A stretch of 41,283 nucleotides of DNA from a virus. The translations under genes and the position numbers were made by a program. Shown here one piece after another: positions 2,411 to 29,753 of this stretch (position 1 is its first letter; each line of letters starts with the position of its first letter). The stretch covers positions 1 through 41,283 of IMG/VR virus record IMGVR_UViG_3300009168_000070. One strand, written 5' to 3'. The notes under the pieces are model-generated. The model worked only from the letters and a program-made list of their open reading frames with translations. It had not been told where the DNA came from and searched no databases.

Positions 2411-2570
2411 GCCTGCCTCTCCTCACCTCGCCATCCATTCCATGCCTCGCCTGGCCTTGCCTGCCTTGCCATGTTTCTGCCTCGCGCATCCTAGCCTAGC
2501 CTGCCAATCCCAGCCTCGCCGGGCCGCGCCTGGCCCGTCCTGTCCCCGCCCCGCCCGTCCTCGCCTGCCG
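2411..2570 (-). repeat. Degenerate 5-bp-period GC-rich array I (GGNNN on the transcribed strand)
   Basis: The plus strand reads as successive pentamers NNNCC (for example tcgcc gggcc gcgcc tggcc). The CC dinucleotide stays in 5-bp register for most of 160 bp while the other three bases vary; a few 4-bp units break the register. It fills the space between the stop of the gene ending at 2575 and the SD of the lipoprotein gene. It is not a CRISPR array (no constant repeat) and not coding. A transcript would be a GG-rich RNA with 5-nt spacing. Function unknown. Confidence 0.8.
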
Positions 2571-2574
2571 CTTC

Positions 2575-3165
2575 TCAGTTGCTTGCCCGTAATGCATTAT
2601 TGCACGTGTTCAGCGCTTCGATTGCGATTGCCAGTGACGCCAATCGATCCGGCTTGTGCGTATCGCCGGCCAATCGCTTCAGGTGTTCGATGTCACGCCG
2701 GAACGCCTCAATCGAGGCTTGGTATTTGAGCAGCGCTTCCACATACTTGTCTTCTTGCGACACAACCTGATTCGGTGTCTCGAATGCCGATGACGACTCT
2801 ACCTTGATGTGAGTCAGCACTCCTTTTTTCGGCTCTTCCTCGGTCAGGATGCGGACCGACACAATGAGCTGCCCAGCCTGGTTGATGCGGTACTTTTCGG
2901 CGGCCTTGCTGTCGTCCCACTCGAACGCGCAGTGCAGTGGCGCGCTTTCCTCTCTCGACTCTTCGAGAAGGAGACGTCCCGTAAGCTTACCGTGCTTCGC
3001 CTTGACCCGCTCGGTCTCTTCTACCACCATTTCCGGGGTGATGCCTTGCGGTGCCCTGAATCCATCGCGGAAAATGTACTCTCCAATCCGCCTCCGCATG
3101 GCTGCTACCTGTGGATGATCTCGCAAATGCCCCTTCTTGCTGTTTCGCTTTTGCACTGTCGCCAT
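2575..3165 (-). CDS. Conserved phage-type hypothetical protein flanked by pentamer arrays (196 aa)
   Basis: A basic N-terminus (NSKKGHLRDHPQVAAMRRRI) is followed by a central segment HCAFEWDDSKAAEKYRINQA and a helical C-terminus (about residues 135-190). The central segment is a motif I associate with unassigned phage early proteins. The start at 3165 has an AAAGGAGGG site. It stands apart from its neighbours, with a 185-bp and a 200-bp gap on either side, both filled with the GG-rich pentamer repeat. That makes it look like a separately inserted cassette. No catalytic residues are recognisable. Possible nucleic-acid role only by context. Confidence 0.75.
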   Translation of the reverse strand: MATVQKRNSKKGHLRDHPQVAAMRRRIGEYIFRDGFRAPQGITPEMVVEETERVKAKHGKLTGRLLLEESREESAPLHCAFEWDDSKAAEKYRINQAGQLIVSVRILTEEEPKKGVLTHIKVESSSAFETPNQVVSQEDKYVEALLKYQASIEAFRRDIEHLKRLAGDTHKPDRLASLAIAIEALNTCNNALRASN

Positions 3166-3191: not shown

Positions 3192-3364
3192 AAGCCTGCC
3201 GTGCCGCGCCGGTCCACGCCGAGCCACGCCTGTCCCCGCCCTGCCTGCCTCGCCTCTCCTCTCCGCGCCTGTCCCCGCCCTGCCTGCCTCGCCTCTCCTC
3301 TCCGCGCCCTCCTCTCCGGGCCGGGCCGGGCCTTGCCTCGCCAAGCCAGGCCTGCCTTGCCTCT
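3192..3364 (-). repeat. Degenerate 5-bp-period GC-rich array II, with a 39-bp tandem duplication
   Basis: Same design as the array at 2411-2570: pentamers NNNCC on the plus strand (GGNNN on the transcribed strand), in register over about 170 bp with occasional 4-bp slips. Inside it, 3231-3269 and 3270-3308 are identical 39-bp copies, showing recent slippage or unequal exchange. It lies between the stop of the gene at 3370 and the SD of the gene starting at 3165. Confidence 0.85.
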
Positions 3365-3369
3365 CGATG

Positions 3370-4008
3370 TTACTCCGATACCAGCTTGAACGTGCCCCAG
3401 CCTAAGCCGGCGCTGCTCTTGCTATCGGGCCTGCCCTCGCCAATGCCGACCTGCATGCCGACCCGAAGCATGAGGTTGGTTACATCTGCAACCGTGAACT
3501 GATCCGAATCGTACTGCACCCGGATCTCCGCGTCCCAATGCCGCCACATCGGACGGATACGGATATCAGCCACGCCAGTAGCATTGCGCGTTGCCATCTC
3601 GATCTTTTCCGGCACGCCATTGAACTTGACAAGGGGGATGCCATCAACGCGGTCCACACCATCGGCAGCCACGAAAACCGACATTTTGGCGATGGTCATC
3701 TTGTAGCCTACCAGCCGGCAGGCCGATATCATCGCATTCCGAAAGGCACTTGCTGGAATGCCCTGCCAGCCCTCCTCGCTGATGTGCTTCGCCTGCTCGT
3801 AATCGTCATCAAAATTTCGAGGGTCTTTCTTTTTCCCCTTTGAAGCCACCGATCCAGCCTCGTGCTTGGCGTGCATCGCCTGCATGGCCTTGGCTGAAAA
3901 TCGAGCCTGCACCATGGGTGCAGTGCCCTCGATCTTGAATCTGACCGTTTCGATTTTCGGTGGCGAAATCGCCACCTGATCTAGCACCACTGTTTTTTTT
4001 GCAACCAT
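3370..4008 (-). CDS. Conserved phage early protein (212 aa), function unknown
   Basis: I recognise this only as a conserved phage early protein. Conserved-looking blocks are GWQGIPASAFRNAMISACRL, a middle segment RNATGVADIRIRPMWRHW, and a C-terminal Gly-rich block VGIGEGRPDSKSSAGLGWG. The last looks like a phosphate- or nucleic-acid-binding loop, but no Walker motif is present. The start at 4008 follows a GGGAG site and a good promoter at 4050-4079 with an inverted repeat between promoter and start. It may therefore head its own transcription unit for genes down to 42. A nucleic-acid-binding role would fit but is unproven. Confidence 0.75.
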   Translation of the reverse strand: MVAKKTVVLDQVAISPPKIETVRFKIEGTAPMVQARFSAKAMQAMHAKHEAGSVASKGKKKDPRNFDDDYEQAKHISEEGWQGIPASAFRNAMISACRLVGYKMTIAKMSVFVAADGVDRVDGIPLVKFNGVPEKIEMATRNATGVADIRIRPMWRHWDAEIRVQYDSDQFTVADVTNLMLRVGMQVGIGEGRPDSKSSAGLGWGTFKLVSE

Positions 4009-4049: not shown

Positions 4050-4079
4050 ATGCTACTACTGTGAAAGAGCATTTGTCAA
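4050..4079 (-). promoter_or_regulatory. Sigma70-type promoter for the distal leftward genes
   Basis: On the minus strand TTGACA (4079-4074, 6/6) is followed after 18 bp by TAGCAT (4055-4050, 4/6). It reads into the gene starting at 4008. The -35 box overlaps the stop codon of the small reading frame 4076-4165. Confidence 0.55.
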
Positions 4080-4491: not shown

Positions 4492-4599
4492 TTACCTCCG
4501 GGAATCGATTATCTTGCTTGGGTTAATGGTTCTATATACCCACAGGCGCGATCGTTCGTCCTGGATCGCTGGACCCTGGTAAAATACGTGCTTGGTCAC
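4492..4599 (-). CDS. Possible 35-aa small protein overlapping the rusA stop
   Basis: A GTG at 4599 overlaps the RusA stop as GTGA, the same junction type used throughout this operon. It opens a 35-codon frame (starting MTKHVFYQGPAIQDERSR) ending in TAA at 4492, where the SD of the next gene begins. It fills the only gap between rusA and the Cys-rich gene. Composition looks protein-like (aromatic and charged residues well spread). No domain can be named. Confidence 0.45.
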   Translation of the reverse strand: MTKHVFYQGPAIQDERSRLWVYRTINPSKIIDSRR

Positions 4600-5084
4600 G
4601 GTATCAAAATTTCACCCAAGTATTCCGACCTCCGAGTGGTGTTGTTGTACGCTATGCGAAGCAACTCTTCTGCGTATTCCCCGATCTTCTCGCAGATCCT
4701 GATCTCTACCCCCACAGGGTGGTCGTCTGCGTACCACTTCCCCCCGCATCTGCCCACGCATTGACAGTCATCGCGGTAGACTATCCCCGTCATCGCGTCG
4801 TAGACGGCTCGGAGCAGCTTGTCATCATCTGGCGCCGTGATCGGGTACGGCCGCTTCGCGCGTTTCACGGATTTTGGTCGTGGCAGATAGAAATCTACCA
4901 CGATCCAGACCGGGCCATCAACAGGAGGCCTACCTCCCATGGCTGATTTCGCGGCATAGCTCACCGCGTCCTGCCATGGCCGGGTCTCCGAGCTGTCGTT
5001 GATCATGCGAGCATGCTTGCCGCACCTAATCGTCCGCATGCTCCCCTTGGGAGCCGGGATACCTACCACTGAAAATGTGATCAT
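4596..5084 (-). CDS. rusA: RusA-family Holliday junction resolvase (162 aa)
   Basis: RusA enzymes cut four-way DNA junctions as dimers, resolving recombination and replication intermediates before packaging. The family hallmark is visible: an acidic cluster P-D86-D87-D88-K89, then D96 in the AVYDAMTGIVY helix, D105-D106 after it, and K116 in GGKWYA. This matches the catalytic Asp/Lys arrangement of RusA. The N-terminal strand FSVVGIPAPKGSMR is also typical. Length is slightly above the 120 residues of E. coli RusA because of a C-terminal extension. It overlaps its upstream neighbour by 4 bp. It probably works with the annealing protein and SbcCD encoded on the other operon. Confidence 0.93.
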   Translation of the reverse strand: MITFSVVGIPAPKGSMRTIRCGKHARMINDSSETRPWQDAVSYAAKSAMGGRPPVDGPVWIVVDFYLPRPKSVKRAKRPYPITAPDDDKLLRAVYDAMTGIVYRDDCQCVGRCGGKWYADDHPVGVEIRICEKIGEYAEELLRIAYNNTTRRSEYLGEILIP

Positions 5085-5284
5085 GTCCCCTCCTTCGGCC
5101 CGGTGCAGGGCAGCGGATGATAACGAAGCGGTGTGTCGAATTTATCCCCCGGCATCTCATAGTTGTAGACGGCCCAACCCGTCCCGAAATCGATCAGATG
5201 TCTGATAATTCCGCAGTGCTCACATGTGCCGTGGTACACCTTCCCCTCCGGCCGCCACTTGTGCTTGAATTTTTTGTCGCTCAT
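5081..5284 (-). CDS. Small zinc-ribbon-like protein (67 aa)
   Basis: The start is taken at 5284 (MSDKKFKHKW) because an AAGGAGGGG site lies directly before it and it overlaps the upstream stop as ATGA. A longer form from 5305 is less likely. It carries C-E-H-C-G with a following His, and a later Cys near the C-terminus, the pattern of a short zinc finger. The segment KFKHKWRPEGKVYHGTCEHC suggests a basic face. Likely nucleic-acid binding. Specific role unknown. Confidence 0.7.
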   Translation of the reverse strand: MSDKKFKHKWRPEGKVYHGTCEHCGIIRHLIDFGTGWAVYNYEMPGDKFDTPLRYHPLPCTGPKEGT

Positions 5285-5544
5285 AGCCCCTCCTTGTCGA
5301 GCCATTGCATAAGCTCGCTTTCGTTGAAAGACACAAGCAGCCCAAGGCGTGAGCGATCCAGCACGACGCCAAGCGGACTGCCTCGCCCTGCCAAATACGC
5401 ACGCATGCCGCGCTTACCGCGCCTGCCAGGAAGTATCAGATCGACCCGACCAAACAGGCCGAAACAGCTTTCTCGCAAATTGTCCCAGCCAACGTATTTT
5501 GGGACGACAATCAGGTTTTCGCACAATCTTTTCGGCTCTATCAT
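5281..5544 (-). CDS. Hypothetical protein (87 aa)
   Basis: Good SD (GGGAGGGG) before the ATG at 5544, with ATGA overlaps at both ends. It is a compact alpha/beta-looking protein with a glycine/arginine-rich centre (LILPGRRGKRGMRAYLAGRG). No family is recognised. It lies between the putative helicase loader and the zinc-ribbon gene. Confidence 0.65.
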   Translation of the reverse strand: MIEPKRLCENLIVVPKYVGWDNLRESCFGLFGRVDLILPGRRGKRGMRAYLAGRGSPLGVVLDRSRLGLLVSFNESELMQWLDKEGL

Positions 5545-6065
5545 TCGCCCCTCCCTGTCGCATCGGCGTAGCTCGTCGGGCCACTGTAGCCGGCGAGATC
5601 CGCGATTGTTTGTGGTAGCTGCTCTGGCTGGCTTTCGAGTAGGTAATCGCCGTAAGCCTGCACCGTCGCTGTTTCCGGGTCGAACCCGGACCGGATGTGC
5701 TGATCGGTAAGCACGTCGACCCGATACCGAGCCTCTTGTGACAACGAGCGCATCTTCTCGAGGATGTCCCTGTACCAGATGTGATGGGCAAGCTGTACCG
5801 GGCCTTGCGGCCTGTACTCTTGCTGATCGTAAGTCTGCACCGGCTTACTTGAATCACACACCATAACCCTGAAATCGTGTGGCGACGGGCATTTGTCGAG
5901 CTGCCTCACCGCTCGCACTACTGCGGCCTCGATTTTATCTATCGGCAGGTCTTCGAGCGCCATCAAATACGGCCGCCGCATTTCTGGCTTGACAATGTTA
6001 GACCAGCCATACTTGAGATCGTCGATAGCCTGCTCAAAACGCTTCATGTCGGTATTCTTATCCAT
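5541..6065 (-). CDS. Putative replicative helicase loader (174 aa)
   Basis: The N-terminal 75 residues (LKYGWSNIVKPEMRRPYLMA, then LEDLPIDKIEAAVVRAVRQL and PSPHDFRVM) match the pattern of small helical phage proteins that deliver helicase to the origin, such as the G39P-like loaders. These share the features short helix bundle, hydrophobic D-L-P, and CPSP/FFP-type turn before the last helix. The C-terminal half is polar and probably flexible. It directly follows the initiator gene (they share one base at 6065), the usual place for a lambda P-like partner. No ATPase motif is present, so it would be a loader without ATPase. Family call is inference. Confidence 0.55.
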   Translation of the reverse strand: MDKNTDMKRFEQAIDDLKYGWSNIVKPEMRRPYLMALEDLPIDKIEAAVVRAVRQLDKCPSPHDFRVMVCDSSKPVQTYDQQEYRPQGPVQLAHHIWYRDILEKMRSLSQEARYRVDVLTDQHIRSGFDPETATVQAYGDYLLESQPEQLPQTIADLAGYSGPTSYADATGRGE

Positions 6066-6994
6066 CAGATCAATCCTTCTGCCCAGTGCTTCTTTACCGG
6101 GGCCTCATGTTTTTCGGCCGGCTGAGTTACCGAGTTTGCAATGAATCGCTCGACATGCGAACCGCCTCGGCATATCAGCTCCAGGTCAACCCACATCTGG
6201 CCGGTATCATTCTCGCCACGGTTGAATGGGGTCATCAGGCAGCCGGTAACGGCCTGGCATAGCTGCTCGATCGTGTAGCCCTCGGTCAACCTTGCCTGCA
6301 CCTTCCTCAGCCTTGCCTTCGTGAATTTCCAGGATTCTGGATTGCCTGGTATCCCGAGTCTACCTGCCTCTTTTTTCCAGTGCTCGAAAATTATCTTCGG
6401 ATCGGGTTTCGGTGTTTTTGCGGCTTCCTCGACATCAAGATCAGGATTTGGATCGAAAACTTGATCCGGATCCGAAACAGGTCGATCGAAAGATCGACAT
6501 ATCTCTTCTTCCTGTTCCTGTTCCTGTTCCTGTTCCTGTTCCTGTTCCTGATTAGGCCAGCCCTGACGAAAGGCTTTGCCAAAGCCTTCCCCTAAGCCTT
6601 CCGTGAAGGCTTTAAGTTTTTGATATGCTTTTGTTTTTATGTGGCAGTTCGGAATGTCCTGAAAATGCTTCCCCCAACCACGCACAACATTCGGGGATTC
6701 GGGGGGATTATGGTCTATCGCTTTCGGGATCCAGATCACCCGAAGTTTTTCGTCTGCTTCCACTAAGCCTTCACGAAAGACTTCCCGAAAGGCTTCCGAA
6801 AGGCTTTCCGGATCCCATCCAAGATCGTCGGCAATCGCTCCCCTTCCGGCGACAAAAAGCCCCGGTATGCTGGTAGAGTATGGGCAGGTAAGTAGATACA
6901 GCCAAAGGCCTTGGCCGCATGGTTTAATTCGAGACAATCGGACGAATCGTTCGTCTCGCCAAACCCTTGGTTCAACTTTTTTGTATCGAGCCAT
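6065..6994 (-). CDS. Phage replication initiator, O-like (309 aa)
   Basis: The start is set at 6994 (MARYKKVEPRVW), overlapping the upstream stop, rather than the longer frame from 7108. Residues 1-110 form a winged-helix-like domain (RVWRDERFVRLSRIKPCGQG, then LGWDPESLSEAFREVFREGL) common to phage replisome organisers. The middle holds a (QE)7 linker. The C-terminal domain (IFEHWKKEAG, then KFTKARLRKVQARLTEGYT) matches the conserved tail of such initiators. In lambdoid phages the origin lies inside this gene, and here the gene contains two clusters of AAGGCTT repeats in 12-bp register. It probably binds its own coding sequence and recruits the loader encoded next door. Confidence 0.75.
   Translation of the reverse strand: MARYKKVEPRVWRDERFVRLSRIKPCGQGLWLYLLTCPYSTSIPGLFVAGRGAIADDLGWDPESLSEAFREVFREGLVEADEKLRVIWIPKAIDHNPPESPNVVRGWGKHFQDIPNCHIKTKAYQKLKAFTEGLGEGFGKAFRQGWPNQEQEQEQEQEQEQEEEICRSFDRPVSDPDQVFDPNPDLDVEEAAKTPKPDPKIIFEHWKKEAGRLGIPGNPESWKFTKARLRKVQARLTEGYTIEQLCQAVTGCLMTPFNRGENDTGQMWVDLELICRGGSHVERFIANSVTQPAEKHEAPVKKHWAEGLI
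6481..6498. other. Perfect 7-bp hairpin with GAAA loop inside the initiator gene
   Basis: GTCGATC-GAAA-GATCGAC lies close to the iteron-like region and the hexamer repeat, inside the linker-coding part of the initiator gene. It may be a DNA structure of the candidate origin or a coincidence of GATC-rich codons. Nearby 6437-6476 also holds several GGATC motifs. Confidence 0.4.
6509..6550. repeat. Hexanucleotide microsatellite, 7 x TTCCTG
   Basis: Seven perfect TTCCTG units in tandem encode a (Gln-Glu)7 linker in the initiator on the minus strand. Length change by one unit keeps the frame, so the linker can vary without loss of the protein. Confidence 0.9.
6570..6806. repeat. Iteron-like AAGGCTT/AAGCCTT clusters, candidate phage origin
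   Basis: The 7-mer AAGGCTT or its complement starts at 6570, 6582, 6594 and 6606 (exact 12-bp steps). It starts again at 6765, 6789 and 6800, with a one-base variant (aagactt) at 6777. Neighbouring copies form inverted repeats (8-bp arms 6570-6577/6581-6588, and 6594-6601/6605-6612). An A/T-rich stretch, 6610-6640, touches the first cluster. The arrangement resembles the lambda origin inside gene O. The same codons give a 4-residue protein periodicity, so a protein-level cause is also possible. Confidence 0.55.
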
Positions 6995-7194
6995 CACCCT
7001 TCCCCCTTCGGCCACCTGCCGATGATGGCCTGAGCATCGGACTCGGTGGCGCAATGCTTCACCCGGTGAGTGTGCCCGTCTGGATAGACGCGCACGATCC
7101 ACCAGCAACTCCGGCCACCGCCGATGTCCTCACGCTCTACAGCCCAGCGTGTTACCTCGCCATCGGTACAAGATATGAGCGGGGAGTTAGTCAT
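6994..7194 (-). CDS. Hypothetical protein (66 aa)
   Basis: The start is chosen at 7194 (MTNSPLISCTDGEVTRW), which overlaps the upstream stop region and has a GGTGG site; the longer frame from 7233 lacks one. The protein is a small beta-rich candidate with two Trp and the segment SCWWIVRVYPDGHTHRVKHC, then a short helix (SDAQAIIGRW). Two Cys and two His could bind a metal, but no family is recognised. It precedes the initiator gene. Confidence 0.65.
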   Translation of the reverse strand: MTNSPLISCTDGEVTRWAVEREDIGGGRSCWWIVRVYPDGHTHRVKHCATESDAQAIIGRWPKGEG

Positions 7195-9897: not shown

Positions 9898-10121
9898 GTC
9901 GTCTCCTTTTTATGGTAGAGTTCACAGGTGTGACCGGCCCATCCATGCCAGCTTTCGTTAACGTGGCAGACTCCTTCGTCTTTCGGCTCATATTGATCTT
10001 CGTCGCCATAAAAATCATAGTACGACTCGAAGTGTTCGCAGGTCAGGCAGTCTGGTTCGAGCTCCTTGATGCAATCTCCGCATGGCCCTTGCTTCATGAT
10101 ATCGGCTACGGTGATTTTCAT
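9894..10121 (-). CDS. Cys/His-rich microprotein (75 aa)
   Basis: The start at 10121 (MKITVADIMKQGPCGDC) overlaps the RNA ligase stop and follows a GGGGTGGGG stretch; the longer frame is a shadow of the ligase. It contains C-G-D-C, C-L-T-C-E-H, and later Cys/His residues (VCHVNESWHGWAGHTCELYH), so one or two zinc sites are likely. It is strongly acidic in the middle. Translation appears coupled to the RNA ligase gene. A partner or adaptor role for the ligase is possible but unproven. Confidence 0.7.
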   Translation of the reverse strand: MKITVADIMKQGPCGDCIKELEPDCLTCEHFESYYDFYGDEDQYEPKDEGVCHVNESWHGWAGHTCELYHKKETT

Positions 10122-10708
10122 GCTATTCCCCACCCCTTCCTCTGAGTGCGCACGAGCCCAAAATCGCGGAGCTTGCATTTTGCCATCCGGCCGTCTGGAT
10201 GATGCCAGACCACACCCTCGATATCGATATCGGAGAAAAAGACCTTGATCTCGTGGTATGATCTCGGCATAGCCGGGGCAAGCCACAACCCATGCCGTAT
10301 AAGCGAGTGGTCGAACAAGCGCTCAGGGTTGCCTCCGATTTTTGGGCCGCAGAGCTCATAAGTGCCGTTGTACTGATCTATTGGTAGACTCATGTTGGGC
10401 TCTAAATCTGACCAGGCCTCGCGATGCCACTGGTCACCTGGCCCAGGACCGACAGGTATCCAACCCGGCCAATGCCCGGTCACCTCGTCCGGCTCTTGAC
10501 AGGGCTCGAAATCTGGGGGAGGAGTCTTGCCGCGCTTGCAGTCATAGCGCTTATAGAGCTTTCCATTGCGGATCATGCAGGCAGTTCCGTCAAGCTTTAC
10601 CGTAGCCTCGCCCTCGCCGGCGATCACCCACTCGCATCCCGGCGTGACCTGCTCCGTCACAAGCCCGGTCTCGAAATCACGAATAAAGAGAGATGGTATT
10701 TTTTTCAT
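10118..10708 (-). CDS. RNA ligase-like covalent nucleotidyltransferase (196 aa)
   Basis: RNA and DNA ligases activate themselves by attaching AMP to a lysine, then seal nicks. The motifs are visible in order: motif I V-K38-L-D-G41 with the nucleophile lysine, motif Ia around LYKRYD, motif III YELCGPKI (E118), motif IV I-E164-G-V-V-W, and motif V M-A-K177-C-K179. The spacing fits the short RNA-ligase-like family found in phages and actinobacteria (DUF5565 type). There is no OB or C-terminal domain, so it is a minimal ligase. It overlaps the HTH gene by 4 bp and is the second gene of the leftward operon. A role in repair of tRNA cut by host defence is plausible inference. Confidence 0.8.
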   Translation of the reverse strand: MKKIPSLFIRDFETGLVTEQVTPGCEWVIAGEGEATVKLDGTACMIRNGKLYKRYDCKRGKTPPPDFEPCQEPDEVTGHWPGWIPVGPGPGDQWHREAWSDLEPNMSLPIDQYNGTYELCGPKIGGNPERLFDHSLIRHGLWLAPAMPRSYHEIKVFFSDIDIEGVVWHHPDGRMAKCKLRDFGLVRTQRKGWGIA

Positions 10709-11407: not shown

Positions 11408-12407
11408 GAACACGAAGGCGCTTGCGCGCCGAGAGAACACAGGGGTGGCCTTGAGCCAGGTCAATGCATCGGCGATCAAGCAGCTCGCCGAGTACCAGCA
11501 GAAGAATTACAACATCCTCACGCCGATCGCCATGACGGAGTACCCTGAAGGATCTCGATTGTCTGTAAGGGCGGAAAAGGTCGAGCTTGCTGATACCTAC
11601 AACGTGAACGGCAAGCAGGCGCTGAAGGGGAACACTATCGACAGGCTTGCCACCTGTGCCGGAATCACGTGGACCAGGGTCAAAAGGATTGACGATCGTA
11701 AGCACCCGCATTACTGCGAATACGAAGTCTGGTGCAGGATCGTTGATATTGATGGCACCGTTCGCGACGGTTTTGGAACCAGGTCCATTGATCTCCGGGA
11801 AGATGCCGGAGGAGGGATAAGGGGCGCGGATCTAGAGGATATCATATGTGACGCGAAAGAAAAAAATAGGAGCCCTGAAAAAGAGATCCGAATGGCACGC
11901 AAGTTCATCGTCTCGCTCTGCGAATCAAAGGCCAAGAACCGGGCCATGCGGCATCATATCAACATCAAGGGTGCGTACACAAAAGAGGAGTTATCGAAGC
12001 CGTTCGTTGTGGTGAAGATTCTCCCGGACTATGGAAACGTAGAGAATAAGCGCATGCTATCGGCCCAGCTCATGGGAGCAACGGCAGCGCTTTACGGGCA
12101 TACTCAGGCTGGTGCTGATGTTGTCGAGGACGCCGAGTATGACGAGCCCGAGGCCCAGCCCGAGCCCGGCCAGGTGCCGGAGCAGGACCAAAACTCCGAG
12201 CCCGACCAGGCACCGGAACCGGCAGCCGACGGCAAGGAGCGGGTTATAGATGCTTGGAAGCAGTTCAAGAAAGGTGGAGGCACGCCCCAGGCCTGGAGAG
12301 CGCTGGTGCTGAAGGCAACAGGGAAAGATGCCGAAGCAGATTTTACCGAAGATGAAGTGTTCGACATCATGAACGCCGTGTTTGAAGCGGATGGGGGAGC
12401 GCAATGA
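11400..12407 (+). CDS. Putative single-strand annealing / recombination protein (335 aa)
   Basis: The first 230 residues form the folded part: LTPIAMTEYPEGSRLSVRAE, then ALKGNTIDRLATCAGITWTR, YEVWCRIVDIDGTVRDGFGT and ESKAKNRAMRHHINIK. This order (strand, helix with AGI-W, strand, S-K-A-K-N-R-A-M-R helix) resembles Rad52-like phage annealing proteins, though I cannot place it in a named family. A Pro/Glu-rich acidic linker (residues about 240-275) joins a small C-terminal helical domain. A GGAGG site precedes ATG 11400. It overlaps sbcD by 4 bp, which supports a recombination role. Confidence 0.5.
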   Translation: MVENTKALARRENTGVALSQVNASAIKQLAEYQQKNYNILTPIAMTEYPEGSRLSVRAEKVELADTYNVNGKQALKGNTIDRLATCAGITWTRVKRIDDRKHPHYCEYEVWCRIVDIDGTVRDGFGTRSIDLREDAGGGIRGADLEDIICDAKEKNRSPEKEIRMARKFIVSLCESKAKNRAMRHHINIKGAYTKEELSKPFVVVKILPDYGNVENKRMLSAQLMGATAALYGHTQAGADVVEDAEYDEPEAQPEPGQVPEQDQNSEPDQAPEPAADGKERVIDAWKQFKKGGGTPQAWRALVLKATGKDAEADFTEDEVFDIMNAVFEADGGAQ

Positions 12408-13564
12408 AGATAGCACATGTAGGAGACCTTCACGTCGATTCAAGGTCTGGCGAGCACGGTCACAGCCTGGACTCGCAGGAAGAGATCCTGAAATGGATAG
12501 GCAATGACGCCGAATCGCATGGGGCAAGGCTTATGCTGGTGGCCGGCGATGTTTTCGACCGCAAGACCGAGGCCTGTGAGCGCAATCTCATTTCTCGGAT
12601 CATGTTCAAGTGGTCAACCTGCTTCCCGGTTGTCATCGTTCGCGGCAATCACGACGGCGAAGGCGAGCTTGAATACATTCAACAAATGCGGTCGATATCT
12701 AATATTTTCGCGGTGTCCGCAGTTGAAACGGTGCATTTTCAAGGCGGTGTAATAGCCTGCCTGCCATGGCCCAGCAAGGCCGCTGTTGTCGCTGACGCTG
12801 GATCTGAATCGTGTATCGAAACCAGGGCACAGGCCCAGGCAGCGCTCCGGACTATTTTTGACGGCTGGCGATCTGATCGAGAAAACTCGCAGCTCCCCCT
12901 CATCGTGCTTGGCCACGTCGATGTTGGAGGGGCAGCCATGGACAGCGGTCAGCCTGTTTCCGCTGCATCAGAGCTATCGGTAAGCGCTCACGACCTGCTC
13001 GACATCGGGGCCGACTACTACGCCCTCGGTCACATCCACAAGCATCAGATACTGCATGAGCGCATTTGCTACGCTGGCAGCATCAGGCAAACCGATTTCG
13101 GGGAGGATACCGTCAAGGGATATTGCCTGGTCGACGTCGAACGCGGCCACGCACCAGTTATTGAGCACCACCGCGCGCCGGGTCGAAAGCTCTATACTAT
13201 CGAGGCTGGTTGGGCCACGAACCAAGGCCAACTTGAGACCGATAACGGAGTCAGAGCAGTAGACGAGGCCATCATACCAGGGCACTCGTACCGGCTACAA
13301 TATACCGTGTCCTCCGATATCCGGGAGCAGGCCCGCGCACAAGCGGAAACAGCAAAACAGCGCTGGCTCAAGGCCGGAGCTGCCTCGGTGAAAATCGACG
13401 CCAAGACAACGCAGATGTTCCGAACCCGGTCCGAGGCCATCCAGACCGCGAAAACGCCAGCGGACAAGCTCGAAGCCTATTGGAAAAGCATCGGCTATGA
13501 GCCCACCGACTGCATCAGGGAAATGGCAAGGGCACTTGAAAGCGAGGTCGGCAATGAAGATTAA
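12404..13564 (+). CDS. sbcD: SbcD/Mre11-like nuclease subunit (386 aa)
   Basis: A metallophosphoesterase-type nuclease that with SbcC cleaves DNA ends and hairpins. All metal motifs are present: G-D8-L-H10 (I), A-G-D49-V-F-D (II), R-G-N82-H83-D84 (III), L-G-H171-V (IV) and L-G-H210-I-H212 (V). Residues about 245-386 would form the capping and SbcC-binding domains. The length is normal for SbcD. The start at 12404 overlaps the upstream stop as ATGA. sbcC follows with an 11-bp overlap. Likely acts in phage recombination and in processing replication intermediates. Confidence 0.95.
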   Translation: MKIAHVGDLHVDSRSGEHGHSLDSQEEILKWIGNDAESHGARLMLVAGDVFDRKTEACERNLISRIMFKWSTCFPVVIVRGNHDGEGELEYIQQMRSISNIFAVSAVETVHFQGGVIACLPWPSKAAVVADAGSESCIETRAQAQAALRTIFDGWRSDRENSQLPLIVLGHVDVGGAAMDSGQPVSAASELSVSAHDLLDIGADYYALGHIHKHQILHERICYAGSIRQTDFGEDTVKGYCLVDVERGHAPVIEHHRAPGRKLYTIEAGWATNQGQLETDNGVRAVDEAIIPGHSYRLQYTVSSDIREQARAQAETAKQRWLKAGAASVKIDAKTTQMFRTRSEAIQTAKTPADKLEAYWKSIGYEPTDCIREMARALESEVGNED

Positions 13565-15872
13565 AAAGTTGAAGATACGTGACATCGGGCCAAGGTGGAG
13601 CACCGGCGAGATCGTGGAGGTAGATTTCGATCAGCTTGGAGCAGCCAAGCTGATCGCGATCAAAGGCAGGAATGGAGCCGGTAAGACCAGCCTGATCGAA
13701 TGCATCCCCGGAGCAGTGTACCGGCAGCTCCCGTCAAGGGGATCTGTCGCCGATCAGGCAACGGGGAAGGAGAGCCTGATCGAGCTCGACCTTGATGCAG
13801 GCAAAAGCTACCGCTGCCAGGTCCAGATAGACGGAACATCGAAAACGAAAAAGCAATCCGCTTATCTTGACCAGGCCGAAGCTCAAGGCCCATTGAACGA
13901 CGGCAAGGTCACAACCTACGATGAGCAGATCGCCAAGTACTTCCCCCCGCGTCAGCTCTACCTATCCTCGGCGTTCGCTGCCCAGGGCGGTCAAGAATCA
14001 TTCCTGAATCTCGACAAAGCCGAGCGCAAGCAGCTCTTCGCCCGCATGCTGGGCTTGGGTCGGATGCAGATCATGAGCGACAAAGCCGGAGAGAAAGCGC
14101 GCGCTGTTTCCGGGGCGATATCACAGGCAGAAGCCACGAGGGGTGTCTACGCCCAGGCAGCCGAAAAAATGGGCCGGATTGCGGTCGATATCGATATCAA
14201 AAAGGAACAGCTCATGCAGGCCAATGAGGATCTCGATCTGGCGCAAGTGAGCGCAGAACAATCGGCGGAAGTGCTGAGGATGTGGGAGGAGTCAAGGCAG
14301 AATCTTGAGCTCGACCTCGTTGAAAAACGAGCCCAGGCGAAAACAGCGGATTCGGAATGGGCAGCCACGGCCAAAGAGCGCACGCGGATCAGGAGCAGGA
14401 TCGAGGATGTGGCATCAGAGCACGAACGAGCCGTTGCATTGCTTGAAGACCGCGCCCACTACGAAGAGCAGGCCCTGACTATCTCGATCAAGGAGGCCTG
14501 GCTCGCCGAAGTTGAGACAAGGCTTGCAGAATGTGTTAAGGCAGCATTGGATTACCGAGAGCGCAGGCAGGCTTGGGAACTGGCAGTCAAGGACGCGGAG
14601 TCGGATATCAAGCGGCTCGAATCCGAGCACAAGCAAGAGCAACAGCGCTTCCGCGACGAGGTGGCACAGCTCTCCCGCGATTTCGGAAAAGCGGAAGCGG
14701 CCAAAGCAGAGCTGGAAGAAGTGCCATGCTTCGGAGAATCAAAGTTCCGTGGTTGCCCGCTCATCAGTACCGCAGCCCAGTTATCGGCCTCCCATGCCGA
14801 GCTCGGCAAGAAGCACGCCGAAGCCATGAACAGGCTTGTAGACATACAATCCGAACCCGTTGCCGTCGCCGTTGCCAAGGCCAGACTCGCAAGCCTCCGC
14901 GATAATGTTCCGTCCCAGGACGCTGTTATAGCCCTCGGAATGATATCGGATCATGAGCGGCATCTACAACGGGCGCGCGAAGAGCTTGACGCGGCGAAGC
15001 TCTGCACGGCCAAGCTTGAAGCCATGGGCGATGCACAAGAGCGAGCCGTCAAGCTCTGTCATGAACTTGAGAAATTGAGGTTGGAGCTGGCGACCGCATC
15101 TGACCAGGTCGAAAAATCGGAAGCTCGGTACTTCGTGGCCGGGTCCGAAGTTGGAGCAGCGGACACAGCGCTGAAAGACATCGAGCTGAAGCGGCCGCAG
15201 GCGGTTGACGAAAGCGATCTCTCCAGGCTCCAAACCCAGGTCACCGATCTCACCGCTGCCGTTGCCGTGCTTGAGCGCCAGCTCGCGGATGCAGCTAAAG
15301 CAAAGGAGAGGGCAGAAGCGCAGAACCTGCACATCATCAACCTGAAATCCAACATGGACGATTGGAAGGCGCTGCAACGGGCTTATGGAAAGGACGGCAT
15401 CCAGGCACTTGAAATCGATGCCGCAGGGCCGGAAGTATCGGGCATTTGCAATGACCTCCTTCACGCTTGTTATGGCGGCCGGTTCACGGTCGCGCTGGAA
15501 ACGACCGCGTTGAAAGCTGATGGCAAAGCCACGAAAGAAGTTTTCGACCTCAGCGTAATCGACACCGAGCTCGGGACCGAGGGCTCTGCATCCGACAAAA
15601 GCGGAGGCGAGCGCGTAATCATCAGCGAGGCCCTGAGCCTGGCCATCGCTATTTTCAACACCCGCAAGAGCGAGATACCCATGCTGGATCTTTTCCGCGA
15701 TGAGTGTTCGGGGGCCCTGAGCCAGGACCATGCGCCGCTCTACCTCGGCATGCTCCGCAAAGCGATTGAGCTCGGGGGATTCCACCGCTGCTTTTTCATC
15801 GCGCATCAGCCGGAGCTATGGGAGCTTGCGGACAGAACAATCACGATCGAAAACGGAAAGGTGGTGATGTGA
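13554..15872 (+). CDS. sbcC: SbcC/Rad50-like ATPase subunit with variant hook (772 aa)
   Basis: An ABC-type ATPase with a long coiled coil that partners SbcD. Walker A is GRNGAGKT (38-45), the Q-loop is near A-A-Q-G-G-Q (142-147), the signature is S-G-G-E-R (683-687), Walker B is near D716-E717 in LFRDE, and the H-loop is H751. Residues about 190-650 are coiled coil. At the apex the usual C-x2-C zinc hook is replaced by VPCFGESKFRGCPL (C392 and C401, C-x8-C). The start at 13554 (MKIKKLKIRD) has a GAGG site. It is shorter than E. coli SbcC, typical for phage versions. Confidence 0.93.
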   Translation: MKIKKLKIRDIGPRWSTGEIVEVDFDQLGAAKLIAIKGRNGAGKTSLIECIPGAVYRQLPSRGSVADQATGKESLIELDLDAGKSYRCQVQIDGTSKTKKQSAYLDQAEAQGPLNDGKVTTYDEQIAKYFPPRQLYLSSAFAAQGGQESFLNLDKAERKQLFARMLGLGRMQIMSDKAGEKARAVSGAISQAEATRGVYAQAAEKMGRIAVDIDIKKEQLMQANEDLDLAQVSAEQSAEVLRMWEESRQNLELDLVEKRAQAKTADSEWAATAKERTRIRSRIEDVASEHERAVALLEDRAHYEEQALTISIKEAWLAEVETRLAECVKAALDYRERRQAWELAVKDAESDIKRLESEHKQEQQRFRDEVAQLSRDFGKAEAAKAELEEVPCFGESKFRGCPLISTAAQLSASHAELGKKHAEAMNRLVDIQSEPVAVAVAKARLASLRDNVPSQDAVIALGMISDHERHLQRAREELDAAKLCTAKLEAMGDAQERAVKLCHELEKLRLELATASDQVEKSEARYFVAGSEVGAADTALKDIELKRPQAVDESDLSRLQTQVTDLTAAVAVLERQLADAAKAKERAEAQNLHIINLKSNMDDWKALQRAYGKDGIQALEIDAAGPEVSGICNDLLHACYGGRFTVALETTALKADGKATKEVFDLSVIDTELGTEGSASDKSGGERVIISEALSLAIAIFNTRKSEIPMLDLFRDECSGALSQDHAPLYLGMLRKAIELGGFHRCFFIAHQPELWELADRTITIENGKVVM

Positions 15873-16945: not shown

Positions 16946-17138
16946 CCGCGCGCTGCCGCTCGTCCCGCAGCTCTTCGAGCACCGCCTCTGACCTGGAGAG
17001 CATGAGCCTGGCTCGGGCGAGCTCTGAAGCGATCGCAAGCGATTGCTGATCGGAAGCGATCGCGATCGCGGCCCGCGTCCGCTCCCGTAGATCGAGGAGC
17101 GAAGCGATCGCTGCCTCGACCTCCTTTAGCGATCTCAT
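16926..17138 (-). CDS. Helical protein with AIAS repeats (70 aa)
   Basis: The start at 17138 (MRSLKEVEAAIASLL) has a GGGAGGAGGTG site and overlaps the previous stop. The whole protein looks like two antiparallel helices. The peptide A-I-A-S occurs three times (plus V-I-A-S), each encoded by GCGATCGCTTC-like DNA. A DNA-level reason for these repeats (GCGATCGC palindromes) is possible. Function unknown. Confidence 0.65.
   Translation of the reverse strand: MRSLKEVEAAIASLLDLRERTRAAIAIASDQQSLAIASELARARLMLSRSEAVLEELRDERQRAVIASLR
17027..17111. repeat. Cluster of AAGCGATYGC repeats (GCGATCGC palindromes)
   Basis: AAGCGATCGC or AAGCGATTGC begins at 17027, 17037, 17054 and 17102. The copy at 17054 runs into a second overlapping GCGATCGC. 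A further AAGCGAT lies at 16937 in the opposing gene. This is a high local density of GATC sites, which may be sites for the phage Dam or for a DNA-binding protein. Confidence 0.7.
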
Positions 17139-18815: not shown

Positions 18816-18842
18816 TAGACAAAAATCGTTGCTGACTATAAT
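18816..18842 (+). promoter_or_regulatory. Possible plus-strand promoter facing the lysis genes (antisense)
   Basis: TAGACA (18816-18821) and a perfect TATAAT (18837-18842), with a short 15-bp spacer. It would transcribe rightward, antisense to the end of the lysis cassette. The -10 lies inside CTATAATATAG, a short palindrome, so chance is possible. Confidence 0.3.
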
Positions 18843-18848
18843 ATAGTG

Positions 18849-19160
18849 TCATCTCCGCACCTCCTCCCACCCCCACCAGGCCACCCCTACTGCCATGCCC
18901 CCCAGGACCACCCCAGCCCCCAGCCATAGCCAGCGCTGCCAGCGGGCGAGCTCGCGCACCTCGACAGTCGGTCGGCAGGCCCTCATCTCTATCATTACTC
19001 CACCGCACTCTATGAGCGCATCCTCGACCTGATCGTACTCGCCCTCGGTCAGGCACACCAGCGACGAGCCGTCAACGGTCGCCGGCACGATACCTGCGGT
19101 TGAGCTCGATGACCCGGCGCAATCGCTCACTGCCAGGAGCAAGAGAGCCACGAATAGCAT
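18849..19160 (-). CDS. Spanin-like protein with N-terminal signal and C-terminal membrane segment (103 aa)
   Basis: The start at 19160 (MLFVALLLLAVSDCAGSSS) has CGGAG just upstream. The N-terminus is a signal sequence whose Cys14 could be lipidated, though Asp at -1 is not canonical. A membrane segment lies near the C-terminus (LWLGAGVVLGGMAVGVAWWG). Outer-membrane lipid anchor plus C-terminal inner-membrane helix is the layout of a unimolecular spanin. It overlaps the i-spanin-like gene by 89 bp in another frame, the layout of Rz/Rz1 pairs. Last gene of the late operon. Confidence 0.6.
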   Translation of the reverse strand: MLFVALLLLAVSDCAGSSSSTAGIVPATVDGSSLVCLTEGEYDQVEDALIECGGVMIEMRACRPTVEVRELARWQRWLWLGAGVVLGGMAVGVAWWGWEEVRR

Positions 19161-27839: not shown

Positions 27840-29753
27840 TCATGCCCTCAGAAAATCCAAATGCCCGGACCGGTACAGATCCTTGAGCACTGGTACATAG
27901 ACCTTCAAAAAATGCCTCTCCGTCTCGGCCTTGTCGTAGGCCCCTGGCATCACCTGTAGATTGATGGTAGGGGCTTGGCCTGTAACAGTTGGCGAAGGGC
28001 CAGGAGTGCCGGGAGGGAGGAAACGCTCCTGACCCCGCGCCAACACCAGCCGCTCCTGTGAAGGAGAGCCGGGAACCACGCCGCCGGAGTGGAACTTCGG
28101 CGGTGATGCAATTTTACCGAGGAGACCCGCAAATAGTGACCCCATGGCCCCGACCGCAGCGACAGCGAGAATCGGACCGATAAAGGGAATCATTGCCTGA
28201 GAGCTCGCAGCATTGGCCATGGCGTCGATCATGCGCGCCATGACGGAGGCCTGGACCTGCTGAATGATTATCTGCATCGAGCGGCTTGCCACACCGGCCA
28301 TGATCTGACCAAATGATTTCTCCCCGGACATGGCGTCATCGATAACGCTGGTCAAAAGCCCGGTTGCAATCGTCGCGTATTTCTGCATCGATTGCTCACG
28401 CGACTTCGCTAGCTTGTCAGCCGACGCGGCCATTTTCTTGTCGAGCGCTATCGCATACTCAGATTGCCCAGCCCGCATTTCCTCGATCTTGCTCGCATAC
28501 AGTTGTTCGGCTTTTTCGCGCTCGCTGAGATTATGATCGTATATTTTCAGGCCCTCAGCAACACTGGCCTTAAGCGCTTTCAGGTCGTCTTCTCCCCAAA
28601 ACTTATCGAGTGCCTTCCCAGCGCTATCAAAATTTTCACCCAGCTCGACCGCACCATGCCCGGCAGCGGACATTGCATTACGGACCCGAGTCAGCGCTGA
28701 GTCTGCGAGCAACGCGAAATCCTCTATGCTCTCTCCTGATTTGTCGGCACCTCGCGCCATATCAGCCAACCCGGTCTGCACCGAATCCAGACCAGCTATG
28801 GCCTTGTCAGCGTACTCGACCAGGATATTGTCATCCTTGCCGATGATCTTCCAGATCGTTCGATAGCCCTCGACTATCGATTTTATCATGCCGATGAAAA
28901 CCCCGGCATAGGTAGAGGCTGCACTTATAATCGTCGCAAAAGCCTTGCCTATGCTGGACGCGCCCGCAACCATAAACGATGTAAACGCCAATACCTTGTC
29001 TGCGAGCTGCGCCATTGTGTCTCGAAGTGCGGCAGAACTTGGCAAATTTTCAAAAAGAATATCTCCAATTTTTTTCATTCCTGCAACGAAGGCCGCGTTA
29101 TTCGTGATCGATCGTCCGATTTCTTGGCGGTAATCCTTGAGAGTGTTAGATGATCTTTCAACCTGCCCGGATAAAGTAAGGAGCTCCGCTGCAAGCGATG
29201 GGGCATACTGTTCAGCTAAAATCTTAATCGCTTCTCCTGAACGTAGTTGTTCTTTGGTCATATTTTTGATCTGCGGCACATAGCGAGATAGCACGCTAGT
29301 CTGTCCGGACAGCGTTTGCGACAACCCCCGCATAGCCGTATCGGTTCCAAGGCCAAGTGCCTTGTTGAGAGCCATTGCAGCCATTGTCATGCTCTCTACG
29401 TGTTCGGTGTTCCTGCTGTATTGTAGCGCTTGATTTTGGAGGGTGAGGATTTGATCGGCGCTTAGCGTGGATTGATTCGCCATTTGTGTTGCGAATGCTT
29501 CCATTTTTCCGAATGCTGCCTCTACGTCCTTGCCATAACTTGCGACAGTCACCTTCAACTGCATGATCGTTTTTTCGAGTTGCATCGCGTCTGCTACGCC
29601 AGCCTTGAATTGCCCGAATGCCGCGCTCGCTATCTTCATCACACCCAGTGCTGCCGCCACGCCGAGGATGGTGGTTTTCAACGATGATATCTCGCTCCCG
29701 ACCTTCTGGAAGCCTTCAGCGCTGGCCTTGAGCATGATATTCAGCGTTGACAT
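27840..29753 (-). CDS. Tail tape measure protein (637 aa)
   Basis: It sets tail length and is ejected with the DNA. The N-terminal third is alpha-helical with a hydrophobic stretch (TTILGVAAALGVMKIASAAF) and the tape-measure-like block ALGLGTDTAMRGLSQTLSGQ. Two further hydrophobic regions (AFTSFMVAGASSIGKAF and MIPFIGPILAVAAVGAMGSL) could insert in the membrane. It follows the G/GT frameshift genes, as in lambda. A tape measure of this length would suggest a tail of about 95 nm if the usual 0.15 nm per residue holds. Confidence 0.85.
   Translation of the reverse strand: MSTLNIMLKASAEGFQKVGSEISSLKTTILGVAAALGVMKIASAAFGQFKAGVADAMQLEKTIMQLKVTVASYGKDVEAAFGKMEAFATQMANQSTLSADQILTLQNQALQYSRNTEHVESMTMAAMALNKALGLGTDTAMRGLSQTLSGQTSVLSRYVPQIKNMTKEQLRSGEAIKILAEQYAPSLAAELLTLSGQVERSSNTLKDYRQEIGRSITNNAAFVAGMKKIGDILFENLPSSAALRDTMAQLADKVLAFTSFMVAGASSIGKAFATIISAASTYAGVFIGMIKSIVEGYRTIWKIIGKDDNILVEYADKAIAGLDSVQTGLADMARGADKSGESIEDFALLADSALTRVRNAMSAAGHGAVELGENFDSAGKALDKFWGEDDLKALKASVAEGLKIYDHNLSEREKAEQLYASKIEEMRAGQSEYAIALDKKMAASADKLAKSREQSMQKYATIATGLLTSVIDDAMSGEKSFGQIMAGVASRSMQIIIQQVQASVMARMIDAMANAASSQAMIPFIGPILAVAAVGAMGSLFAGLLGKIASPPKFHSGGVVPGSPSQERLVLARGQERFLPPGTPGPSPTVTGQAPTINLQVMPGAYDKAETERHFLKVYVPVLKDLYRSGHLDFLRA

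What the first reader, a model, noticed from the sequence alone, without database searches (positions are those of the whole stretch)
3192..3364. Second pentamer array with a perfect 39-bp tandem duplication
A second copy of the same design flanks the other side of gene 2575-3165. Two identical 39-bp blocks (3231-3269 and 3270-3308) show the array is actively expanding or recombining. Two arrays bracketing one gene suggest a cassette that moves by homologous exchange between arrays.
Basis: partly seen in the sequence, partly recalled or inferred. Interest (0 to 1): 0.7.

Follow-up and report, generated by a model that had tools for sequence, protein, structure and literature searches.

The report
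Phage guide-RNA array, VIPR type
The five-base repeats are very likely guide-RNA genes of VIPR, a recently described phage system in which a small relative of CRISPR proteins reads two letters of every five, probably to silence rival phages; the perfect 39-base duplication looks like one duplicated guide.

Summary
In detail: a pentamer array at 3192-3364 holds a perfect 39-bp tandem duplication, and a sister array lies at 2392-2584. The explanation is not a mobile cassette. On the coding (minus) strand the arrays read (NNGGC)n, broken every 5n-1 bases by a one-base joint GGC-A-GGC. The gene upstream (3370-4008) folds as a Csm3/Cas7-like RAMP, and its family profile hits the vipr gene of phage SUSP1, the model phage of the VIPR preprint (PMC13142463, main text read). 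The bracketed gene 2575-3165 sits beside vipr in 241 of 268 loci, always on the same strand: an accessory (vap) gene. Of 120 loci picked by array pattern alone, 103 carry vipr or vap. NN usage fits codon positions 1-2 best, as the published one-base-skip rule predicts, but I found no natural target. The 39-bp block is one unit (eight triplets, seven NN); two near-identical relatives differ by 39 bp in the array. Verdict: new member of a known kind. Side result: GTC replaces GGC in six loci, tracking one G-loop residue.

The parts
3370..4008 (-). vipr: 212-aa RAMP (Csm3/Cas7-like) protein, phrog_4652; proposed guide-RNA-binding subunit
   Evidence: AF2 model pLDDT 83.5; Foldseek top hits Csm3/Cas7 of type III and VII CRISPR; VIA Z 10.7 to Csm3, rmsd 3.2 over 148 residues; profile of 50 relatives hits SUSP1 vipr at E 6.6e-7
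3192..3364 (-). array B (the finding): head-to-tail guide units, scaffold GGC/GGA + NN, joints GGC-A-GGC at 3350-3356, 3282-3288, 3243-3249, 3194-3200
3246..3284 (-). 39-bp unit (8 triplets, 7 NN: AG GG CA GC GA GA GA, then the single A of the joint); one period of the perfect tandem duplication reported at 3231-3269 / 3270-3308
3197..3245 (-). 49-bp unit (9 NN: AG GG CA GT TC GT CC GC AC); shares its first three NN with the 39-bp unit
3285..3352 (-). 68-bp stretch between joints with an internal phase slip; holds part of the second copy of the duplicated block
2575..3165 (-). vap candidate: 196-aa conserved neighbour, phrog_15946, function unknown
   Evidence: homolog in 241 of 268 vipr loci, all same strand; same pairing in Cy-LDV1, mycobacteriophages and Gordonia phages; AF2 pLDDT 88 but no PDB match at E<=0.001
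2411..2569 (-). array A: units between joints at 2563-2569, 2499-2505, 2459-2465, 2411-2417, including a clean 64-bp unit with 12 NN (2502-2565)
4050..4079 (-). sigma-70-like promoter match upstream of vipr (TTGACA-18-TAGCAT); could drive vipr-arrayB-vap-arrayA as one transcript
   Evidence: 1 found against 0.8 expected by chance, so position only

Best explanation
The arrays are vrRNA (guide RNA) genes of a VIPR system. The RAMP protein at 3370-4008 is thought to coat a transcript of the array, gripping each GGC/GGA triplet and presenting each NN pair. The NN pairs together name a DNA target read as NNxNNx..., with every third base skipped, mostly the wobble base of a codon in another phage. 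Binding would repress that gene; the neighbour at 2575-3165 is the accessory (vap) protein. Units are joined head to tail by a one-base joint, GGC-A-GGC, which I take to mark guide boundaries. The 39-bp duplication is one unit copied by recombination or slippage. Shown here: array architecture and strand, RAMP fold (by prediction), homology to the published Vipr, linkage to vap, codon-like NN usage, unit gain/loss in relatives. Inferred from the preprint: RNA expression, RNP formation, DNA binding, repression, target phages. Inferred by me: the joint as boundary.
For: RAMP fold. Profile hit to SUSP1 vipr (ALH47069.1), which lies about 110 bp from a GGYNN array on the same strand. Arrays in 64 of 77 first relatives, 97 on the gene's strand and 0 opposite; in the wider set in 258 of 268 vipr loci, 112,924 array bases on the gene's strand and 867 opposite. 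Unbiased direction: 120 loci picked by array pattern alone, vipr in 96, vap in 92, either in 103. 1276 distinct joint contexts: joint base A 0.92, NN positions near 0 bits away from the joint, unit lengths 5n-1 with mode 49. Vap pairing. NN usage: codon positions 1-2 fit best, bootstrap 95% intervals against all five other phases above 0 (165 loci, 4351 NN), lost when each NN is reversed or replaced by uniform pairs. Published mechanism: PMC13142463 main text.
Against: No natural target found: the 12-NN window unit (10 NN used), one Saal unit and one ODay unit gave 0 hits in viral contigs; two Bradyrhizobium units gave 1 one-mismatch hit outside any ORF of 90 aa or more (265 genomes) and 0 hits (257 genomes); local scans did not clearly separate skip 1 from controls. 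The window's scaffold is GGC/GGA, not GGY, and the 39-bp unit has 8 triplets against the 9-16 repeats reported for the clades studied in the preprint. No SUSP1-like tail was seen, and the vap profile does not match SUSP1's neighbour gene. Three inter-joint stretches of the window are irregular. 17 of 120 array loci showed neither gene (some are contig ends), 10 of 268 vipr loci no array by the GGC mask. No expression data.
Confidence: 0.9

Rival explanations
1. Recombination cassette: the arrays are homology tracts by which gene 2575-3165 is swapped.
For: Two arrays bracket the gene; perfect 39-bp duplication; array indels between near-identical relatives.
Against: The gene is a conserved partner of vipr in 241 of 268 loci; arrays occur in other positions too; NN letters are hypervariable, which would defeat homology.
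Confidence: 0.03
2. dsDNA sites (iterons or annealing sites) for a phage recombination or replication protein; Cy-LDV1 has bet and exonuclease genes nearby.
For: Short-period repeats near replication genes; RusA-like gene close by.
Against: Strict orientation with the gene strand, hypervariable but codon-like NN pairs, and linkage to a RAMP protein rather than to recombinases.
Confidence: 0.04
3. Simple slippage-prone low-complexity DNA without function.
For: GC-rich period-5 DNA; tandem duplication; RNA folding no better than shuffles (z -0.51).
Against: Same architecture in many different phages beside the same two genes, with conserved joint and strand.
Confidence: 0.01
4. Coding repeats: the array is translated (an open + strand ORF, 2388-2729, crosses array A).
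For: Open frame of 113 aa.
Against: Arrays lie between stop codon and ribosome-binding site on the gene strand; unit lengths such as 44, 49, 59 and 64 are not multiples of 3.
Confidence: 0.02

Closest known systems
VIPR systems (PMC13142463; SUSP1 and Pseudomonas fulva prophage, called type II there)
   Same: Phage-borne RAMP gene, GG-pyrimidine/NN pentamer RNA genes in intergenic regions on the gene strand, small accessory gene next door; profile homology to SUSP1 vipr; codon-like NN usage.
   Different: Window has concatenated units with one-base GGC-A-GGC joints and no tail seen, where SUSP1 has four separate tailed vrRNAs (preprint); scaffold GGC/GGA rather than GGT/GGC; accessory gene not alike at sequence level. 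[quoted passage not shown] S18, not seen), so the type is not assigned here.
CRISPR type III Csm3 / Cas7 (RAMP backbone subunits)
   Same: Predicted fold (Z 10.7) and glycine-rich loop.
   Different: No spacer-repeat array; about 13% identity; period 5, where Cas7 subunits disrupt pairing at every sixth base (preprint text).
CRISPR arrays
   Same: Head-to-tail guide units separated by a constant element; units gained and lost.
   Different: Constant and variable letters alternate every few bases; the separator is one base between two GGC triplets.

Membership tests
VIPR | Vipr protein: RAMP homolog with RRM core and G-loop | tested here: met
   profile hit to SUSP1 vipr E 6.6e-7, alignment over the G-loop half
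VIPR | Guide genes of alternating GGY (or a related consensus) and hypervariable NN | tested here: met
   met in the broad form: the window uses GGC and GGA (26 GGC, 9 GGA, 0 GGT in array B)
VIPR | Arrays in intergenic regions flanking vipr, accessory vap gene | tested here: met
   that the neighbour acts as a vap is inferred from its position
VIPR | Target read by the one-nucleotide skip rule | tested here: inconclusive
   indirect support from codon-phase usage; no direct target
VIPR | vrRNA transcribed and bound by Vipr; DNA binding and repression | not testable with these tools
   needs small-RNA sequencing, pull-down and reporter assays
VIPR type II (SUSP1 clade) | Invariable structured 3' tail after each guide | tested here: not met
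   the two arrays run from GGCAGGC into about 30 nt holding the next gene's ribosome-binding site; no shared tail apparent in 30 of 279 array ends read by eye; no Rfam match
VIPR type II (SUSP1 clade) | vap1 of SUSP1 (taken here as its neighbour gene ALH47068.1) | tested here: inconclusive
   vap profile scores E 0.03 in a three-protein search, no real match; folds not compared
CRISPR-Cas class 1 | CRISPR repeat-spacer array and cas gene set | tested here: not met
   repeats are pentamers with two free letters, not long repeats with spacers; four genes beside the arrays matched no cas model in PADLOC

The most novel reading that the evidence does not exclude
The constant triplet of the guide is itself a second, protein-read code that phages have rewritten several times. 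In six loci the scaffold is GTC/GTT instead of GGC, with at least four separate changes forced by well-supported branches, and the switch goes with the residue after GEGRP in the glycine-rich loop (D195 in the window; N or S in 5 of 6 GT loci, 10 of 191 GG loci). If D195 reads the middle scaffold base, VIPR systems with different scaffolds would be orthogonal, and the GGC-A-GGC joint would be a cutting or loading mark in a head-to-tail guide array.
Probability: 0.3. Interest if true: 0.7.

Novelty: new member of a known kind. Interest (0 to 1): 0.5.

Why it matters
It places a repeat that looks like junk or a recombination hot spot inside an RNA-guided inter-phage system proposed to pre-date CRISPR. 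It gives a large set of loci with a tail-less, one-base-joint array layout (over two hundred fetched here, plus mycobacteriophages that infect M. smegmatis, an easy laboratory host), shows that guides turn over as whole units, supports wobble skipping without needing to know any target, and names one residue to test for reading the scaffold.

Tried and rejected
Cassette exchange: rejected on the constancy of the bracketed gene and its linkage to vipr.

Direct target search, negative or inconclusive: window unit 2502-2565 (10 of its 12 NN) 0 hits in viral contigs; one Saal unit 0; one ODay unit 0; Bradyrhizobium lablabi units: 1 one-mismatch hit in 265 genomes, outside any ORF of 90 aa or more, and 0 in 257 genomes, where the reversed control pattern had 2. 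Local scans: 1.64 Mb, skip 1 gave 3 one-mismatch and 35 two-mismatch hits, other skips 0-4 and 11-21, reversed NN order at skip 1 gave 0 and 25; 2.67 Mb, perfect 8-NN windows 6 for skip 1 against 1-5 for other skips and 1-5 for shuffled or reversed NN at skip 1.

No Rfam match, no tRNA, no special RNA fold (z -0.51), no Pfam family (one spurious Ycf1 match in 1 of 50 members), no convincing PADLOC match (LeoC at E 0.0081 for the accessory protein). Pattern search for relatives of 2575-3165 found none in viral contigs; the family was then built by iterated HMM search in fetched loci. The accessory model had no Foldseek match at E<=0.001; best VIA Z 7.7, over the C-terminal helical hairpin only, so its fold is undecided. 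Paper searches; only PMC13142463 was read (main text), the rest seen as search listings.

Scaffold residue test: column 195 was picked after scanning 198 columns; label permutation gives 0.0125 (5 of 400), but independent pairs only 4:0, median sign p 0.125. Against it, 10 of 191 GG-type loci also carry N/S, among them mycobacteriophage Saal. The quick tree used 95 of 131 chosen rows.

Full report
Observation. The array at 3192-3364 and its 39-bp perfect tandem duplication are in the sequence as described. The lag-39 identity run is 43 bp; resampled sequence of the same composition never exceeded 16 bp in 500 trials. Period-5 identity stands about eight standard deviations above the window mean. 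The sister array lies at 2392-2584. A third stretch over the same threshold, 18834-18896, is C-rich DNA without the NNGGC pattern.

Anatomy. The window is a 41,283-bp virus record. The genes here lie on the minus strand, in the order 3370-4008, array B, 2575-3165, array A, 1931-2389. On that strand the arrays read GGC or GGA followed by two free letters, and every 5n-1 bases the two letters shrink to one, giving GGC-A-GGC. The 39-bp block is one such unit: eight triplets, seven NN pairs and the joint. The clean units hold 7, 9 and 12 NN; the other three inter-joint stretches (68, 40 and 48 bp) carry phase slips.

Relatives. A search with the 3370-4008 protein gave 76 viral loci; with Cy-LDV1 that is 77, of which 64 carry arrays by a strict chain detector, 97 arrays on the gene's strand and none opposite; a control with permuted letters gave no array. 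Later sets bring vipr-bearing loci to 268 (233 distinct by sequence); 258 have arrays, with 112,924 array bases on the gene's strand and 867 opposite. All 16 bacterial-genome loci found have a period-5 stretch. Annotated phages with the gene are 25 Mycobacterium, 5 Gordonia and one cyanophage record, 31 of 50,697; Saal has about 250 bp of array just upstream of it.

Array statistics. Over 1276 distinct joint contexts the joint base is A in 92%; NN positions away from the pairs that touch the joint carry 0.00-0.14 bits, while the two scaffold Gs mostly carry 0.7-1.6 bits; unit lengths are mostly 5n-1, commonest 49, 54, 44 and 59.

Proteins. The AlphaFold2 model of 3370-4008 (pLDDT 83.5) matches Csm3/Cas7 subunits: nearly all of the 50 Foldseek rows shown are type III or VII CRISPR RAMP chains, best E 2e-5, and VIA gives Z 10.7, rmsd 3.2 over 148 residues. 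The C-terminal GIGEGRPDS...GLGWG stretch is taken as the glycine-rich loop (name from the preprint and recall). Gene 2575-3165 belongs to phrog_15946; its family is found in 241 of 268 vipr loci, always on the same strand. Its model is confident (pLDDT 88) but matches nothing well.

Identification. A paper search for pentanucleotide repeats in phages led to PMC13142463, whose whole main text I read (supplement not seen). It describes VIPR: a phage RAMP homolog, guide RNAs of GGY/NN repeats, DNA reading with one skipped base, repression of competing phages, accessory vap genes and seven types. As a direct link I searched SUSP1, its model phage: an array is at 29174-29226, and the profile of the window's family hits the annotated gene ALH47069.1 (28474-29061) at E 6.6e-7, over the half that holds the G-loop.

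Decoding. If each NN names codon positions 1-2 of a target, NN usage should resemble those positions. Using gene profiles from the same loci, NN pairs fit sense codon positions 1-2 best (-3.999 bits per NN), then antisense 1-2 (-4.084); the other four phases give -4.134 to -4.298. Bootstrap intervals of the first against every other exclude zero (165 loci, 4351 NN). Reversing each pair drops the fit to -4.206, and uniform pairs give -4.166. By locus the best phase is sense 1-2 in 84 of 165 and antisense 1-2 in 37 of 165. The fit is not complete: NN drawn from that phase would give -3.849. No direct target was found, which weak sampling could explain, but it leaves this step indirect.

Turnover. 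Of 135 near-identical pairs, 44 are identical throughout; I inspected four of the other 91. L284 and L289 differ by 39 bp in the array with 6 mismatches; L282 and L289 by 137 bp with 2 mismatches; L017 and L018 show no indel; the L153-L293 comparison did not cover the array upstream of the gene. Metagenome assembly could collapse tandem units, so these indels need reads.

Scaffold switch. L214 (Gemmatales), L064, L213 and three further contigs from a GTC pattern scan use GTC or GTT in place of GGC, all with vipr homologs; in L064 the joint is GGC-A-GTC. On a quick tree (95 of 131 rows) the trait needs six changes, at least four by starred branches. The residue matching D195 is N or S in 5 of 6 GT loci against 10 of 191 GG loci. 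This is a hypothesis chosen after the fact, with the limits told under Tried and rejected.

Judgement. The finding is a real, functional-looking element and a member of a kind described in 2026. The cassette reading is not supported; unit turnover is.

Noticed in passing
L214 (about 4520-5500 and on), L064 2060-2650, L298, L299, L300, L213: VIPR-like arrays whose scaffold is GTC/GTT rather than GGC; L064 keeps a GGC-A-GTC joint.
   Followed up: partly
L293 3574-3808 (Mycobacterium phage Saal): GGCNN array just upstream of gp51 (vipr homolog) and gp52 (vap homolog), both annotated hypothetical; a culturable model for this layout.
   Followed up: partly
window 6509-6550: Perfect (TTCCTG)7 tract inside the replication-protein-like ORF 6065-7108(-), coding a Glu-Gln run.
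   Followed up: no
window 10118-10708: RNA ligase family protein (phrog_14301, E 3.6e-70) in the same phage.
   Followed up: no
window 12404-15872: SbcCD-like nuclease pair on the plus strand.
   Followed up: no
window 17029-17111: Four GCGATCGC octamers within 83 bp (6 in the window, 2.4 expected); this octamer is common in cyanobacteria (recall), and the nearest annotated vipr relative is in a cyanophage, so the host might be cyanobacterial.
   Followed up: partly
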